From IMG/VR virus record IMGVR_UViG_3300007628_000003, positions 1 through 23,310 of that record: 23,310 nt of DNA; one strand, 5' to 3'. Source of the stretch: a virus. This document shows, one piece after another, positions 1,338 through 16,292 of the stretch; the stretch's first letter is position 1, and each line of letters opens with the position of its first letter. The notes beneath the pieces were generated by a model. That model saw only the letters and a list, made by a program, of their open reading frames with translations, searched no databases and had not been told where the DNA came from. The translations under genes and the position numbers were made by a program.

Positions 1338-3956
1338 ATGTTTCTTAATGTATATTACGATGCATATAAAGACAAAATTTATCATAGATATATTGATGAA
1401 AATGGTAAAAGGAGGGTGGAGAAGGTTGACCCAGTATATGAATATTATATATATGATAGTTCGGGAGAATCACCAATTAAAGATATTTTTGGCGTTCCAG
1501 TTGTAAAGAAAATAGCAAAAGATAAGAAAACTTACAAAGACATTTCAAAGAGGTCTAAGGTATGGGAATCTGATTTACCGGTTGACATGAAATTCTTACA
1601 TCAACGGTGGGGACATAAAGAAAGAAAACTTGACATTTCCAATTTTCAAATAGCCTCTATTGATATAGAATGTGAGGGGAAGGTTGATTTTACAAATTTA
1701 CAGGGTGCAAAAACGCCAATCAATCTTATTACTGTTGGGTTATCAAAACAAAATGAATATTATACGTTTGGAACGAGAGAGTATACGGGTGGTAAAGTTT
1801 CTAACTATTTTTGGATTCCAGATGAAAAACGCCTTGTTGAAAAGGTTATTGAATTTTTACGTAGAGCTAAGGTTGATGTTTTTACTGGGTGGAACATTAA
1901 CGCAAATCACAACCAGCGTTCAAAAGTAAATGGTTTTGATATTCCATATGTGATTTATAGATGTGTTGTGTTGGGGATTGATTACACTAAACTTTCTCCA
2001 TACGACATAGTAAGAGAAGTAAAAGAAAATCAATTTGAAATAGCTGGCTCTTCAATTCTTGATTATGAGGCACTTTACAAAAAATTTGAAAGGGTGAAGC
2101 GGCAGAATTACAAACTTAATACCATTGCTAACATTGAATTGGGTGAAGGTAAGTTAGATTTTGATGGCTCGTTCAGTGATATATTTTTAACTGACTGGAA
2201 TAAGTTTGTTGAATATAATGTACAGGATGTTAAACTGATTGTTAATCTTGAGAATCATCCAAATAAGGGTAAAAAATATATTGAATTAGCCCTTCAAACG
2301 TGCTACCAATCTCTTATTCCGTTTGATAGGATATACTCAACTGTTCAAATGGAAACTGGCTACATTCTTGATTTCATGCACAAACAGAATCTTGTTATAA
2401 ACAATAAACTTTTGTCAAGTAGTGAAGATAAGGTTCCGGGTGCATATGTATATATGAAACGTGGATTGACAAATTTTATAATGACGTATGATTTTAAGTC
2501 AATGTATCCATATCTTATTTTACAGTATGGCATTTCTCCTGAAAATCTTGTAATGAATCCAGATAACATTGATGGTTTAAGCAAAACCCCATTGTCTGAA
2601 ACAAAAGTGTGGGAGGTTGCAGATGGAACAGTTAAGGTTGGTGGGGTGTATTATAAAAAAAATGATAACGCGGTAATTCCTTCGGTTACTCGAAAGATAC
2701 TTAAAGAGCGCGAAGAGTTTAAGAATAAGAAAAAGATTAGTGAGGCGATGAAGCAGGGGCACGATGTTTCTACGATTGCAAAGAGTATGAAACTCGATTA
2801 TGATTTTGTAAAGGAAGTTCACAATGAAATTTTGAGAGAAGGGTTTAGTTCAAAATATTATGATGCTCAACAGAATGTAAGAAAAATTTATGCAAATTCG
2901 CTTTATGGTATTCTGAACTCTAAGTATTTTCATTACTATAATACTAACAATGCAATGGCGATTACTCTTGGTGGTCAAGAGCTTATTAAGCATGTTTCTG
3001 AGAAGCTAAATAAGTATGTTAAGTTGTCTTGGCATGTCATGGCTCATAAGTTAGTTCCTGAATATGTTAAAGTCAAAGATATTGAGCCCGTGAAAGACGA
3101 TGTTGTTATTCTTATTGACACCGATTCAAATGGTTTTACTTTACAGGAAATGATTAAGAATGCCGGAATAGTATTCAAAGATAATCAAGATTTTATAAAT
3201 TTTTGCCAGATACTTGAGGTCAAATATTTTGATACGTTCTTCAATAAAATACTTGACATTTATGCAGCAAAATATGGTGTTGAAAATAAGATGGTGTTTA
3301 AGCGTGAGAAAATTGGAACTAAATTTTTCTCTAATGTGAAAAAGAGGTACTTGGTTGAAGTATTAGATAATGAAGGTGTTACGTATTCCGAACCACAATA
3401 TGACAATAAAGGCATTGAAACAGTAAGAACAGATACGCCGACGTTTTGTAGGGAATATCTTGAAAAATTATTGATTTTTATGCTTCACAATTCCAAAGAA
3501 GACACTCTGAAATATATGAAATATATCAAGGATAAGTTTAAAAAAGCTCCTATTGAAGATATAGCCATACCGAAAGGGGTTTCGGATTATGATAAATATG
3601 CACTCCCCATTGACAATTACCTAAAGAAAGGTTTATTTTACAAGTCAAAATGTCCGATTCATAACAAAGCAGCTATAAATTACAATTATTTGATAACTAA
3701 ATATCATTTGAATTATGAAACTGTTGTAAATGGAACAGCTATAAAATTCTTTCATATAAATCCAAAAAATGAATTGAAACAAGAGGTTGTGGGTTTTATT
3801 GGGAAGTTTCCGAAAGAGTTTTTAGATAAATTTCAAATAGATTATGATTACATGTGGAATAGAACGTTTCAAAACATAATTCAGCGTTATTTTTATGTTC
3901 TTGGGTGGGGAGATGTGACATTCAAGAAAACTGATTTTTCTAAATTCATAAAGTAG
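1338..3956 (+). CDS. 43: DNA polymerase, family B (T4 gp43-like)
   Basis: Replicative polymerase with 3'-5' proofreading, 872 aa against about 898 in T4. The N-terminus resembles T4 gp43 (xRYIDENGKxR). Exonuclease motifs: ExoI SIDIE (D109, E111), ExoII in GWN...FDIPY (184-204) and ExoIII Y-NVQ-D (Y293, D297). Polymerase motifs: A, YDFKSMYP (D385, 388-391); B, K-x3-NSLYG (516-524); C, IDTDS (D594, D596). A KKRY segment lies further on, as in gp43. ExoII is interrupted by about 12 extra residues (187-198) between GWN and GFDIPY, absent from T4 and RB69. Another segment (about 470-500) between motifs A and B reads like a small helix-turn-helix. All catalytic residues are present. Translation begins 10 nt after the glycosyltransferase stop, with AAAGGA just upstream. 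Confidence 0.97.
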   Translation: MFLNVYYDAYKDKIYHRYIDENGKRRVEKVDPVYEYYIYDSSGESPIKDIFGVPVVKKIAKDKKTYKDISKRSKVWESDLPVDMKFLHQRWGHKERKLDISNFQIASIDIECEGKVDFTNLQGAKTPINLITVGLSKQNEYYTFGTREYTGGKVSNYFWIPDEKRLVEKVIEFLRRAKVDVFTGWNINANHNQRSKVNGFDIPYVIYRCVVLGIDYTKLSPYDIVREVKENQFEIAGSSILDYEALYKKFERVKRQNYKLNTIANIELGEGKLDFDGSFSDIFLTDWNKFVEYNVQDVKLIVNLENHPNKGKKYIELALQTCYQSLIPFDRIYSTVQMETGYILDFMHKQNLVINNKLLSSSEDKVPGAYVYMKRGLTNFIMTYDFKSMYPYLILQYGISPENLVMNPDNIDGLSKTPLSETKVWEVADGTVKVGGVYYKKNDNAVIPSVTRKILKEREEFKNKKKISEAMKQGHDVSTIAKSMKLDYDFVKEVHNEILREGFSSKYYDAQQNVRKIYANSLYGILNSKYFHYYNTNNAMAITLGGQELIKHVSEKLNKYVKLSWHVMAHKLVPEYVKVKDIEPVKDDVVILIDTDSNGFTLQEMIKNAGIVFKDNQDFINFCQILEVKYFDTFFNKILDIYAAKYGVENKMVFKREKIGTKFFSNVKKRYLVEVLDNEGVTYSEPQYDNKGIETVRTDTPTFCREYLEKLLIFMLHNSKEDTLKYMKYIKDKFKKAPIEDIAIPKGVSDYDKYALPIDNYLKKGLFYKSKCPIHNKAAINYNYLITKYHLNYETVVNGTAIKFFHINPKNELKQEVVGFIGKFPKEFLDKFQIDYDYMWNRTFQNIIQRYFYVLGWGDVTFKKTDFSKFIK

Positions 3957-10908: not shown

Positions 10909-11848
10909 TATTGATAGTATTTTTGATTATATAAAAGATATCCAGTTAAAATCAAATGTTCTTATTTTTGATGCTCACAATTTAGTATATAGGATGATTC
11001 ACAGTGCAGCATATGAATTTGAAAAAACTGATAAGCGTTATTATATGGGTCAGGAAGAAAAGACGTGGACTAAAACTGAATATTATGGTTATTGGAAACA
11101 TCTTGTAATTTCGAGTATTTTTTCTGTTATAAAAGATAGGCGACCAGATAAAGTAATATTGGCATTTGATGGCGACAATACTTGGAGAAAAGAGATATAT
11201 TCTGATTATAAGTCAAGTAGAAAATTGAAGCGAAAAAAATCAAAGGTTGATTTTGATGAATTTTTTCCTATACTGAATGAATTTATCAATGAACTTAGAA
11301 TTATTTTTTCAAACTTTTATGTGCTTAGAATAGACACGTGTGAGGCTGATGATGTAGTTGCTATATTGACTAAATATTTTTTGAAATCTGAGGATGTTTC
11401 TGTTGAATTGATAAGTACAGATAGTGATTTTACACAGCTTCAGATATATCAAAATTTCAAACAGTACAATCCAACCACAATGAAATATATGAAATCTGTA
11501 AATCCCTTGATGGATTTACAAGTTAAGATTATTAGTGGTGACAATTCAGATGATATTCCCGGTATTAAGAATCGATGTGGTCCAAAAACAGCAATGAAAA
11601 TACTGAATGAGGGACTTGATTCGCATCTTGAAGATGAAGACACGAAAAAGAAATATGTTTTAAATACTAAACTCATTGATTTTGAATATATACCAAAGCA
11701 AATATCTGATAAGATAGTTGATTGTTATTGTAAATATGAAACTGCACAATTAAAACCGAATGTGGTTTCTGATTGGTTTATAAAGAATGGACTCAATGAT
11801 TTAGAGAAGAAATGGCAATCAGATTCAACTACAATTAAGAAGATATGA
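10892..11848 (+). CDS. rnh: RNase H / 5'-3' exonuclease (T4 Rnh-like, FEN family)
   Basis: A 318-aa member of the flap-endonuclease/5' exonuclease family, closest in pattern to T4 RNase H (305 aa). Metal-binding acidic clusters appear in order: LIFDAHNLVYR (D27), ILAFDGDNTWRKEIYSDYK, EADDVVAIL, STDSDFTQL and KIISGDNSDDIPGI. The last leads into a helix-hairpin-helix-like GPKTAMKIL, which binds DNA. FEYIPKQISDKIV near the C-terminus also parallels T4 RNase H (FDYIPDNIASNIV). It would remove RNA primers and adjacent DNA from lagging-strand fragments and interact with gp32. Its stop overlaps the gp4 start (ATGA). Confidence 0.92.
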   Translation: MQKISNIDSIFDYIKDIQLKSNVLIFDAHNLVYRMIHSAAYEFEKTDKRYYMGQEEKTWTKTEYYGYWKHLVISSIFSVIKDRRPDKVILAFDGDNTWRKEIYSDYKSSRKLKRKKSKVDFDEFFPILNEFINELRIIFSNFYVLRIDTCEADDVVAILTKYFLKSEDVSVELISTDSDFTQLQIYQNFKQYNPTTMKYMKSVNPLMDLQVKIISGDNSDDIPGIKNRCGPKTAMKILNEGLDSHLEDEDTKKKYVLNTKLIDFEYIPKQISDKIVDCYCKYETAQLKPNVVSDWFIKNGLNDLEKKWQSDSTTIKKI

Positions 11849-12360
11849 TACATAGAAAAGGAAGTTGGTATCAAGGGACATATACGCCGAAATATCCCGA
11901 AAAGTGTTTAAATAAGGGCAACATTGAATACAGAAGCTCTTGGGAAGCTAAAGTGTGTTACCTTTGTGACATGTCAGGTAACATATTGAAATGGGGATAT
12001 GAACTTCTAAAAATACCTTATACTGATATTAAAGGTAAAGTTAGAACATATATAACAGATTTTATTGTTGTTCTTAGAAGTGGTGATAAAATTGTTAAAT
12101 GTGTATGGGAAGTGAAGCCACAAAAACAGGGGCCGTTGCTTGAAGCTGGAAAACTAAACACTAAAAATAAACCACAACAACCAACGAGAAAAACAAGAAA
12201 AGCAATGGCAAGATATAATTACGAATTGAAAACATATGTGAACAATACTAAGAAATGGAACTCGCTTATGGTATATTGTAAATCTAATGGTTATGTGTTT
12301 GAGGTCATTTCTGAGCAACACATTAAACAAATGATGAGTAGGTTAAGTAAGATAATATGA
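11845..12360 (+). CDS. 4: Head completion protein / TnsA-like nuclease (T4 gp4)
   Basis: 171 aa, about 20 longer than T4 gp4. Hallmarks shared with that family: IEYRSSWEAK near the N-terminus (E34), ILKWGYELLKIPY (T4 IIAWGSE…IPY), RTYITDFIVVL (D72) and CVWEVKPQ (E89, K91). E…D…ExK is the catalytic layout of TnsA and other restriction-like nucleases. TR-K-AMARYNYELKTYVNNTKKW parallels the T4 region before its NTDKW. In T4 the protein is needed to finish DNA-filled heads so that tails can attach. It is encoded here in the replication block beside RNase H, not with the other head genes. It overlaps both neighbours by ATGA. Confidence 0.85.
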   Translation: MIHRKGSWYQGTYTPKYPEKCLNKGNIEYRSSWEAKVCYLCDMSGNILKWGYELLKIPYTDIKGKVRTYITDFIVVLRSGDKIVKCVWEVKPQKQGPLLEAGKLNTKNKPQQPTRKTRKAMARYNYELKTYVNNTKKWNSLMVYCKSNGYVFEVISEQHIKQMMSRLSKII

Positions 12361-12548: not shown

Positions 12549-15253
12549 CTAACATGGAGAAGTCGTTAGGGGTTTTATCAGATATTACTGTTTTTTCAAA
12601 ATATGCGAGGCATCTTTCAGATAAGCAACGACGAGAAATTTGGGAGGAATTGACTTGGCGCAATTTGGGAATGCATCTTAAAAAATATCCTTTTCTTGAA
12701 AATGAGTTAATGGATATATATAGAGGGGTTTTAGATAAAAAAGAATTGCCATCAATGCGTTCAGTTCAATTTGCTGGTAGGGCAATTGAATTGAATAATG
12801 CGAGAATTTATAATTGTTTTAAAAACACAACTGCTTTTATTACAAATGAAGGAGTAAAAACATTTAATGATTTTAAAGATGGCGACAATATAAATGTTTT
12901 AACACATCTTGGTAATTGGAAAAACGCAGTAGTAAAAAATTACGGAGTGCAAAAACTGAACAAGATAACAATAAAAAGAGGAAGAAATGAAATTGTTGAA
13001 TATGCAACTCCAAACCATCGTTGGTTACTTTCAGATGGTTCTGAAACAACTTCGTTAAAAAAAGGCGATTGTTTAATGTCTGCTCCGTCATTATTTGAAA
13101 AATTTAATTATGATAATACAGAACCTTTTGATAAAGTTTCAAATAAAACAAACGCTCTTTTTATAGTAAAAAACATTGAAAAATTTAACAAAGAAGAAGT
13201 TTGGTGTTTGGAGGTAGAAGACGACAAGTCTTTTGTTCTATCGTCTGGTATAAGTACGGGGAACTGTGCATATTTACCAATGTCAGAATTGGAAGCGTTT
13301 CAGGAAGTTATGTTTTTGTTGCTTGGTGGTACAGGGGTTGGTTATAGTGTTCAGAAACATCACGTTTCTCAACTTCCACCACTGATTGGGCCCTCAAATA
13401 AATCTAAAAAATATGTAGTCAGCGATTCAATTGTTGGGTGGGCTGATGCGGTGAAAACTTTAGTAAGTTCATATTTTAAAGGTAAACCAGCTCCAAGGTT
13501 TGATTTTAGTGATATTAGACCAAAAGGTACTTTATTGGTAACTGCTGGTGGTAAAGCACCCGGACCAGCACCATTAAAAACATGTTTACATCAAATAAAG
13601 CAAGTTTTTGATTCGGTTATTGAAGAAAGGGGATTGGGAACATCACTTAAACCAATTGAAGCTCATGATATTAATTGTCACATCGCAGATTCAGTATTAT
13701 CTGGTGGTATTCGTAGAGCCGCTATGATTTCTTTGTTCTCGTATGATGATAAAGAAATGCTTGAATGTAAGTTTGGTTCTTGGTGGGAACGAAATCCACA
13801 ACGTCAACGTGCAAATAACAGTGTTGTTATGGTTAGAAGTAAAGCCAATAAAAAACATTTTGATTGGGTTTGGGAAAGAGTGAGAGCGAGTAATTCGGGT
13901 GAGCCGGGAATTTATTGGACAAATGATAAAGATTTGGGAACAAATCCTTGTTGTTTTGCTGGTAAAACTAAAATATTGACAGAAAATGGTTATATAGAAA
14001 TATCAAGAATGGTTGATAAACAACTTCGTTTTGTAAATGTTAAGGGAGAATTGGTTAATGGTACAGTTTGGTCGAACGGGTTTAAGAAAACTATAAAACT
14101 AACACTGTCAAATGGAAATGTGATAGTTTGTACACCCGACCATGTTTTTATGGATATGTGTGGAGACGAGATAGAAGCTAAGGATACGTTTGACAAGTTA
14201 TTAAAATCGGAAAATGGGTTCGCTGTTACAGTTGAAGAAATAAATGATTTTGGTTTTTTGGAGGTTTTTGATTTTTCACTTGATGATGATACACATTGGG
14301 GGGTTGTTGAGGGTGTTATTGCTCATAATTGTGAAATTTCTCTGAAGCCATACCAATTTTGTAATCTTACCACGGTTAATGGTTCAACTGTTGAAAATCA
14401 AGAAGATTTTAATAATAGAGTATATTCAGCGTCTTGCATTGGCACGTTACAGGCTTCATATACAGATTTTAATTATTTGCGGGATTGTTGGAAAGAGACC
14501 ACGGAAGAAGATGCTTTAATTGGTGTAAGTATTACTGGAATTGGTTCTGGAAAATTAGAACATCTTGATTTAGAAGAAGCTGCTGTGATTGCTAAAAAAA
14601 CAAATGAAGAATTTTCAAAAATGATAGGTATAAATCCAGCGGCAAGAGTTACAACTATTAAGCCAGAGGGTAGTGGTTCTCTCGTTGTTGGCTCATCATC
14701 TGGTATACATGCTTGGTATGCACCTTATTATATCAGACGAATGAGATTTAATAAAGATGAAGCTATATATTCATATTTAAAGAGAGCTATACCTAATTTA
14801 GTTGAAGATGAATTTTTTAAACCAGAAACCGAAGGTGTTGTTTCTATTCCAGTTAAAGCTCCAGAAGGTGCAATTTATAGATATGAATCGGCAATTGATT
14901 TACTTGAAAGAACTAAGAAATATCACGATAAATGGATAAAGCCGGGACACGTGTCGGGTGTCAACACTAATAATGTTTCTGTCACAGTGTCAATTAAAGA
15001 TGATGAGTGGGAAAATGTTGGTAAATGGATGTGGGACAATAGAAATTCATATAATGGCATTTCTGTATTGCCATATGATGGAGGTTCTTATGTTCAAGCA
15101 CCGTTTGAGGAAATAACTGAAGAGACGTATAATGAGTTGATTAAATATGTTAGAAATATTGATTTGACAAAAGTAAAAGAAGTTATGGATTCGACTAATC
15201 TAAACGGTGAAGTTGCGTGTAGTGGTGGTTCATGTGAAGTCACTCACATTTAG
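12545..15253 (+). CDS. nrdJ: Class II (B12-dependent) ribonucleotide reductase with two inteins
   Basis: The precursor is 902 aa: 626 aa of enzyme plus inteins of 150 and 126 aa. The exteins resemble monomeric adenosylcobalamin-dependent ribonucleotide reductases: LSDITVFSKYAR and RRE-WEEL near the start, GGTGVGYSVQ, RPKGTLLVTAGGKAPG, DSVLSGGIRRAAM, SGEPGIYWTND, and KPEGSGSL-VGSSSGIH. Catalytic motif N-x-C-x-E is N467, C469 (thiyl-radical cysteine) and E597, interrupted by intein 2. C241, just after intein 1, corresponds to the redox-active active-site cysteine (NCAYLP). The C-terminal ACSGGSCEV is a C-x4-C shuttle pair. It reduces ribonucleotides to deoxyribonucleotides. No NrdB-like radical subunit is nearby, consistent with class II. 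Activity should require both splicing events. ATG 12554 is an alternative start. Confidence 0.94.
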   Translation: MTNMEKSLGVLSDITVFSKYARHLSDKQRREIWEELTWRNLGMHLKKYPFLENELMDIYRGVLDKKELPSMRSVQFAGRAIELNNARIYNCFKNTTAFITNEGVKTFNDFKDGDNINVLTHLGNWKNAVVKNYGVQKLNKITIKRGRNEIVEYATPNHRWLLSDGSETTSLKKGDCLMSAPSLFEKFNYDNTEPFDKVSNKTNALFIVKNIEKFNKEEVWCLEVEDDKSFVLSSGISTGNCAYLPMSELEAFQEVMFLLLGGTGVGYSVQKHHVSQLPPLIGPSNKSKKYVVSDSIVGWADAVKTLVSSYFKGKPAPRFDFSDIRPKGTLLVTAGGKAPGPAPLKTCLHQIKQVFDSVIEERGLGTSLKPIEAHDINCHIADSVLSGGIRRAAMISLFSYDDKEMLECKFGSWWERNPQRQRANNSVVMVRSKANKKHFDWVWERVRASNSGEPGIYWTNDKDLGTNPCCFAGKTKILTENGYIEISRMVDKQLRFVNVKGELVNGTVWSNGFKKTIKLTLSNGNVIVCTPDHVFMDMCGDEIEAKDTFDKLLKSENGFAVTVEEINDFGFLEVFDFSLDDDTHWGVVEGVIAHNCEISLKPYQFCNLTTVNGSTVENQEDFNNRVYSASCIGTLQASYTDFNYLRDCWKETTEEDALIGVSITGIGSGKLEHLDLEEAAVIAKKTNEEFSKMIGINPAARVTTIKPEGSGSLVVGSSSGIHAWYAPYYIRRMRFNKDEAIYSYLKRAIPNLVEDEFFKPETEGVVSIPVKAPEGAIYRYESAIDLLERTKKYHDKWIKPGHVSGVNTNNVSVTVSIKDDEWENVGKWMWDNRNSYNGISVLPYDGGSYVQAPFEEITEETYNELIKYVRNIDLTKVKEVMDSTNLNGEVACSGGSCEVTHI
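12815..13264 (+). other. Contiguous mini-intein 1 in NrdJ (at the redox cysteine)
   Basis: NrdJ residues 91-240 (150 aa). Block A starts with the nucleophile C91 (CFKNTTAFITNEGV). Block B is VEYATPNHRWL (about 152-162), with the T-x-x-H-like signature. Block F is EVWCLEVEDDKSFVL (218-232). The end is SSGISTGN-240, followed by extein C241. Excision rejoins ARIYN to CAYLP, the continuous sequence expected of the enzyme. There is no homing endonuclease domain. The penultimate residue is Gly, not the usual His; some natural inteins lack that histidine, so splicing is plausible. Confidence 0.9.
13952..14329 (+). other. Contiguous mini-intein 2 in NrdJ (inside the catalytic motif)
   Basis: NrdJ residues 470-595 (126 aa). 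Block A begins at C470 (CFAGKTKILTENGYIEI). Block B is VIVCTPDHVFM (526-536), with the canonical T-P-D-H. Block F is LEVFDFSLDDDTHWG (572-586). The end VIAHN-595 has the standard His-Asn and is followed by C596. Excision yields NPC-CEISLKPYQFCN, the expected enzyme sequence. It is a minimal intein with no room for an endonuclease. The insertion point (NPC/xEI) is, from memory, the one used by the split intein NrdJ-1 known from ocean metagenomes; here the intein is unsplit and the +1 residue is Cys. Confidence 0.93.
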
Positions 15254-15263
15254 AAAGGTTTAA

Positions 15264-15368
15264 ATGAAAGTAAAGAAACTACATAAAATGCACTACAGTG
15301 GGGTGGTGCATAATATATCGGTAGAGGACAATCACAATTACGTTGCTGATGGTTTATTGGTTTCTAAT
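15264..15368 (+). other. Split-intein C-terminal fragment (Int-C) of UvsW
   Basis: 35 residues starting at the ORF's own ATG. VHNISVEDNHNYVADG is a canonical block F and LLVSN-35, followed by extein C36, is block G. This is the size and sequence type of Int-C fragments of natural split inteins (typically 30-40 residues). No block A or B precedes it in this frame, because the nrdJ stop is 10 nt upstream. The penultimate residue is Ser rather than His. The matching Int-N should end a gene encoding the UvsW N-terminal half up to its Asp-Glu. Confidence 0.92.
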
Positions 15369-16292
15369 TGTCATTCTGCAAAGACCTATTCAATAAATAA
15401 GATTGGTAAGATGTGCGACAATGCAGAATATAGGATTGGGTTTACTGGAACGCTGCAAGAAGATATGAATGATTTACTTAACATCGAATCGGTTATTGGA
15501 CCAGAATTGATAAATGTTAAGTCTGATGAAGGTATAGAAATGGGTGTTATATCGCCCATTTCTATTGTAAATGTTTTGCTTAAACATAAGCAAAATATAG
15601 TAAATGAGATATTTGATTTCGATAAGCAAATTAAGGATATAAATAAATATATAAGGGAATTGAAAGATGTAGATGGATCAGAAGAAACTGTTGAAGGTTA
15701 TAAGGAACAAAGAACCAAGGTCAAACAGAGAAAATTTAGATTTGAGTCTGATTTGGTAAAGAGTTCAATGGATAGGATGTGTGTTTTTGATTGGATATTT
15801 TCAAAGATACCTAAGCCTCAAAACAATCTTATTTTGATGCAACATATAGAGCAAGTTAAGAACGTTGAACAGTATTTAATTGACAATTTAGATGATGATT
15901 ATAAAGTGTTTATAATTTATGGGGAGATAAAAACTGAACAACGAGAAGCTATACGAAAGTTGGTTGAAACAGAAGAGAATTTGATAATTGTCAGTACATA
16001 TAAAACTATGTCAACTGGTCTTAACATGAAGAAATTACACAATGTCATATTCGCTTCTAGTTATAAATCAAAAATTACAATTTTACAGTCTATTGGCAGA
16101 GGGCTTAGAAAGTCTAAAGATAAGCAGAAAATGGTTTTGTGGGATGTTATAGATGATTTGAGTTATTCCAGTTCAAGAGGAAATTTAATTACAAATTATC
16201 TATATGAACATTTTAGAGAGAGATTGAAATATTATGTTGAACAGAAATTCAATTTCAAAACTATTAAACTTGAGATTGATAAGTTGATTTGA
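15264..16292 (+). CDS. uvsW: UvsW helicase, C-terminal half, preceded by split-intein C-fragment
   Basis: 342 aa. Residues 1-35 are the C-terminal fragment of a split intein. Residues 36-342 are the C-extein: it begins CHSAKTY, the second half of the DEAH-box motif II (DE/CH) of UvsW. GFTGTL (motif III) follows, then VSTYKTMSTGLNM (motif V) and ILQSIGRGLRK (motif VI), then VLWDVIDDLS; each parallels T4 UvsW. Motifs Q, I (Walker A) and the DE of motif II are missing and are not found elsewhere in the window. ATP hydrolysis therefore requires joining to an N-terminal half made from another locus. UvsW unwinds branched DNA and R-loops and rescues stalled forks. AAAGG before ATG 15264 shows it is translated on its own, 10 nt after nrdJ. 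Confidence 0.93.
   Translation: MKVKKLHKMHYSGVVHNISVEDNHNYVADGLLVSNCHSAKTYSINKIGKMCDNAEYRIGFTGTLQEDMNDLLNIESVIGPELINVKSDEGIEMGVISPISIVNVLLKHKQNIVNEIFDFDKQIKDINKYIRELKDVDGSEETVEGYKEQRTKVKQRKFRFESDLVKSSMDRMCVFDWIFSKIPKPQNNLILMQHIEQVKNVEQYLIDNLDDDYKVFIIYGEIKTEQREAIRKLVETEENLIIVSTYKTMSTGLNMKKLHNVIFASSYKSKITILQSIGRGLRKSKDKQKMVLWDVIDDLSYSSSRGNLITNYLYEHFRERLKYYVEQKFNFKTIKLEIDKLI

What the first reader, a model, noticed from the sequence alone, without database searches (positions are those of the whole stretch)
15264..16292. UvsW helicase is fractured inside its DEAH box by a split intein; the N-terminal half is not nearby
The ORF begins with its own ATG and ribosome site, carries a 35-residue Int-C (block F VHNISVEDNHNYVADG, block G LLVSN) and continues at CHSAKTY with only the C-terminal helicase motifs (III, V, VI). 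The break falls between DE and CH of motif II, so ATPase activity needs trans-splicing. In the fractured-gene arrangement described for phage split inteins in ocean metagenomes, the two halves usually flank a free-standing homing endonuclease. Here the upstream neighbour is nrdJ, 10 nt away, and no Int-N, N-extein or endonuclease occurs in 15 kb upstream or 7 kb downstream. The halves must be dispersed, or the N-half lost.
Basis: partly seen in the sequence, partly recalled or inferred. Interest (0 to 1): 0.82.

Follow-up and report, generated by a model that had tools for sequence, protein, structure and literature searches.

The report
Split-intein phage helicase missing its partner
A T4-like environmental phage carries only the back half of the UvsW DNA helicase, tagged with the back half of a split intein; related phages keep the front half next door, but here it is not within about 30 kb, so the halves are either joined from distant genes or the front half is gone.

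Summary
ORF 15264-16292 is a 35-residue Int-C fused to the C-terminal half of UvsW, broken between DE and CH of helicase motif II. No N-half, Int-N or homing endonuclease is found in the window or in overlapping contigs of the same phage (about 30.8 kb together). The nrdJ/uvsW-C junction recurs in two other, non-identical contigs, so misassembly is very unlikely. The split itself is a known kind: the same site carries the same intein family in cultured Salmonella S16-type phages, Proteus phage PM2, Prevotella Lak phages and many viral contigs, usually as uvsW-N/Int-N, a free-standing endonuclease gene, then Int-C/uvsW-C. Of 115 distinct UvsW Int-C sites elsewhere, 100 have Int-N upstream (at most 4.4 kb away), 14 are cut off by sequence edges and one has its N-extein nearby; none resembles the window. 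Best reading: a fractured uvsW whose halves became dispersed and need trans-splicing (about 70%); main rival: N-half lost, C-half a relic. Whether the N-half exists could not be tested, because only about 31 kb of this phage is available. New variant of a known kind; moderate interest.

The parts
15264..15368 (+). Int-C, 35 residues, ends ...LLVSN
   Evidence: Homologous to Int-C of split inteins at the same site; weak Pfam Intein_splicing match
15369..16289 (+). UvsW C-extein, starting with Cys+1 and CH of motif II; contains motifs III, V and VI; stop codon 16290-16292
   Evidence: PF00271 E 9e-10; T4 UvsW 2oca E 3e-28
15254..15263 (+). 10-nt spacer AAAGGTTTAA between nrdJ stop and uvsW-C ATG, with a ribosome-site-like AAAGG
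   Evidence: Sequence; same junction in L002 and L003
12545..15253 (+). nrdJ, the upstream neighbour, where relatives have the endonuclease and uvsW-N
   Evidence: ORF list; matches phage class II ribonucleotide reductases in three pieces

Best explanation
The ORF is the downstream half of a fractured uvsW gene. An intein of a phage family that inserts at DE|C of helicase motif II became split, with a free-standing homing endonuclease between the halves. In this lineage the endonuclease was lost and the halves were separated by rearrangement, leaving Int-C/UvsW-C behind nrdJ while Int-N/UvsW-N lies elsewhere in the genome. Both proteins are made separately, the intein halves associate, and trans-splicing joins ...DE to CH..., rebuilding the ATPase site. 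Shown: the anatomy, the site, the family, and absence of the partner from 30.8 kb. Inferred: that the N-half exists and that splicing occurs.
For: Intact Int-C and C-half with an own start and ribosome-site-like sequence; same site and intein family in many phages with the N-half next door; all UvsW columns conserved in at least 98% of 174 C-halves are kept; ORF intact in three non-identical contigs; split genes with no endonuclease match exist at 21 sites, and L092 has its halves 4.4 kb apart; most of the phage genome is unseen.
Against: No N-half or Int-N in 30.8 kb. No unpaired Int-N of the expected DEC[LF]HP type with enough downstream sequence among 68 matching stretches of viral contigs. 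No other dispersed case among 115 sites.
Confidence: 0.7

Rival explanations
1. The N-half and endonuclease were lost outright. The Int-C/C-half ORF is a recent relic, or is kept for a non-helicase role, and UvsW function is absent or supplied by another helicase.
For: No N-half in 30.8 kb and no candidate unpaired Int-N in viral contigs. The C-half keeps 26 of 30 columns conserved at 90%, below the family mean. The three strains are too alike to show selection.
Against: The ORF is undamaged and keeps every column conserved at 98%; a useless 342-aa ORF would be expected to decay.
Confidence: 0.22
2. The N-half is supplied in trans by another replicon, such as a co-infecting phage or a prophage.
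For: Fractured uvsW of this family is common in phages, so donors exist.
Against: Such dependence would be unreliable, and no case was seen; no relative of the C-half was found in bacterial genomes.
Confidence: 0.04
3. The arrangement is an assembly error that joined nrdJ to uvsW-C and dropped the N-half.
For: The window is a metagenomic assembly and the arrangement is unique in this survey.
Against: L002 and L003, separate contigs with strain differences, have the same junction.
Confidence: 0.02

Closest known systems
Fractured uvsW of Salmonella S16-type phages (S16, STP4-a and others) and Proteus phage PM2, annotated as two helicases with a hypothetical protein between
   Same: Same break at DE|CH, homologous Int-C, separate C-half ORF with its own start
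   Different: There the N-half/Int-N and an endonuclease-like gene lie directly upstream; here nrdJ does
Fractured genes with phage split inteins (Dassa et al. 2009, from memory; AceL NrdHF, PMC7891396)
   Same: Gene broken by a split intein in a phage-like genome
   Different: Both halves flank a free-standing endonuclease in that arrangement; neither the endonuclease nor the N-half is near here
Contiguous inteins at the same UvsW site (L341/L345, L360, L373, L376 and others)
   Same: Same insertion site and intein family in the contigs tested
   Different: One open reading frame, expected to splice in cis
Cyanobacterial DnaE split intein (from memory)
   Same: Works like it if the N-half is distant: two dispersed genes, one enzyme after trans-splicing
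   Different: Bacterial chromosome and replicative polymerase; here the second gene has not been found

Membership tests
Split intein (Int-C half) | C-terminal intein end with block F and a final Asn followed by Cys, Ser or Thr | tested here: met
   ...NHNYVADGLLVSN|C; invariant residues of the family kept in the alignment
Split intein (Int-C half) | Cognate Int-N encoded in the same genome | tested here: inconclusive
   Absent from 30.8 kb; the rest of the genome is not available
Split intein (Int-C half) | Trans-splicing activity | not testable with these tools
   Needs co-expression
Fractured gene (phage) | Both gene halves adjacent, flanking a free-standing homing endonuclease | tested here: not met
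   Upstream neighbour is nrdJ; no N-half or endonuclease of this kind nearby; the TnsA-like ORF 11845-12360 is a head-closure protein
UvsW helicase | C-terminal helicase domain with motifs V and VI | tested here: met
   PF00271 and 2oca matches
UvsW helicase | N-terminal domain with Walker A (motif I) and DE of motif II | tested here: not met
   Not in this ORF and not in the 30.8 kb around it

The most novel reading that the evidence does not exclude
A phage in which the two halves of a split-intein-broken recombination helicase are encoded far apart, so that the active enzyme exists only after trans-splicing of proteins from two distant operons: a phage counterpart of cyanobacterial DnaE and a step beyond the fractured-gene stage.
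Probability: 0.65. Interest if true: 0.55.

Novelty: new variant of a known kind. Interest (0 to 1): 0.45.

Why it matters
The UvsW site offers a graded series in one gene: intact, contiguous mini-intein, split with an endonuclease between the halves, split without it, and (here) halves apart. If the distant N-half exists, it shows how a gene break made by a mobile element becomes permanent and dispersed, and it would let one test whether the timing of two operons controls assembly of a recombination helicase. The intein pairs may also be useful in protein engineering.

Tried and rejected
Misassembly: two further contigs have the same junction. N-half in overlapping contigs to the left (L168) and right (L169, L171): none. 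N-half as an unpaired DEC[LF]HP-type Int-N elsewhere in viral contigs: none with enough downstream sequence. The nrdJ inteins as partner: the second gives only a weak Int-N match (31%, E 1e-3), and both are complete in-frame mini-inteins. The TnsA-like ORF 11845-12360 as the endonuclease: it is a gp4-like head-closure protein. Closest relatives by capsid protein (at most 47% identical) mostly have intact uvsW, or a contiguous intein. A near-identical deposited phage: none. Bacterial genomes with the C-half as query: no relative. Literature: no held paper has both 'split intein' and UvsW; Dassa et al. 2009 is not held, so I could not check whether UvsW is among its eight gene types.

Full report
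What was checked. The window is one entire virus record of 23,310 bases, from a T4-like phage with a gp43-type polymerase, gp4-type head closure, nrdJ and a portal gene. The ORF at 15264-16292 encodes 342 residues: 35 residues of Int-C, then the UvsW C-half from CH of motif II onward. Support comes from Pfam Helicase_C (E 9e-10; the Intein_splicing match at residues 2-35 is below cut-off), from T4 UvsW (2oca, E 3e-28) and from Int-C at the same site in other phages (up to 51% identity). T4 UvsW itself has DECH, so the Cys after the junction is both the splicing nucleophile and a normal helicase residue.

Absence of the N-half. HMMs from 23 N-exteins and their Int-N were run on all stop-to-stop frames of the window and of L002, L003, L168 and L171. 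The best scores were E 0.15 and 0.52, against 1.3e-61 or better and 3.8e-33 or better for held-out fractured genes. The overlapping contigs add about 0.8 kb on the left (L168) and, by my count, about 6.6 kb on the right (L171), 30.8 kb in all. The nrdJ/uvsW-C junction is also in L002 and L003, which differ from the window by 0.6% and 0.2%, so it is a property of the population and not of one assembly.

The family. Cultured Salmonella S16-type phages carry, in order, a UvsW N-half ending ...NDE-C plus Int-N, an endonuclease-like gene, and Int-C plus the C-half. Proteus phage PM2 and viral contigs L013 and L014 do likewise. Prevotella Lak phages have Int-N and Int-C about 1.1 kb apart. I call the endonuclease Vsr-like from its sequence and from memory of the family described by Dassa et al.; a Pfam check failed on a coordinate error and was not repeated.

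The census. After removal of identical sites, 115 distinct UvsW Int-C sites outside this phage were classified: 64 split with the endonuclease between the halves, 21 split without a match to it, 15 in one open frame, 14 with under 1.5 kb of upstream sequence, and one (L284) where Int-N was not detected but an N-extein lies about 0.8 kb upstream. Part of this set was fetched by Int-N and is biased towards having it. In the set fetched by Int-C alone, 61 of the 62 sites with enough upstream sequence had Int-N within 6 kb, L284 being the other. The largest gap was 4.4 kb (L092). The window phage, with about 15 kb upstream and none, stands alone.

Is the half still under constraint? All UvsW columns conserved in at least 98% of 174 C-halves are kept, and 26 of the 30 columns conserved in at least 90%. 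That fraction is below the family mean, and the gene is on a long branch, nearest to a mixture of split (L124, L125) and intact genes. The three strains are too alike for a selection test. This fits a working or recently working protein but does not prove it.

Mechanism. By itself the ORF lacks Walker A and the Asp-Glu of motif II, so it cannot be an ATPase. From established intein chemistry the likely course is association of Int-N and Int-C from two separately made proteins and ligation of ...DE to CH.... Dispersal could follow if recombination separated the halves after loss of the endonuclease; 21 of the sites above are split with no match to the endonuclease. In L013 a gp32-like gene, a primase-like gene and a small uvsY-like gene precede uvsW-N (these names are mine, from the sequences). 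In the window the primase-like gene is followed by ruvC, an rnh-like gene, gp4 and nrdJ, and only then uvsW-C, which would fit a local rearrangement. This ordering argument is inference.

Verdict. The split belongs to a widespread phage intein family that I did not find described for UvsW in the held literature, although the key paper could not be read. The absence of the partner is unusual and unexplained. Dispersal is favoured over loss, mainly because the C-half is intact and most of the genome is unseen.

Noticed in passing
window 12815-13264 and 13952-14329: nrdJ carries two complete in-frame mini-inteins (about 150 and 126 residues), at N|CAYLP and at NPC|CEISL, both at cysteine motifs of the reductase (intact nrdJ genes match in three pieces).
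   Followed up: partly
L377 5095-8039; similar sites in L347, L350, L365, L369, L381, L383 and L387: The same split-intein family also breaks a second helicase-like gene at its DE|CH motif, which to my eye resembles DinG/XPD, with an endonuclease-like gene between the halves.
   Followed up: partly
L345 about 2760-3030 and L346 about 1930-3450: In two related phages uvsW is also broken near motif V, before STGINIK; the upstream half ends in a similar tail of about 50 residues in both, and no Rfam intron family matched.
   Followed up: partly
L092 10315-14679: A fractured uvsW whose halves are 4.4 kb apart with no match to the usual endonuclease between them: a possible intermediate towards dispersal.
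   Followed up: no
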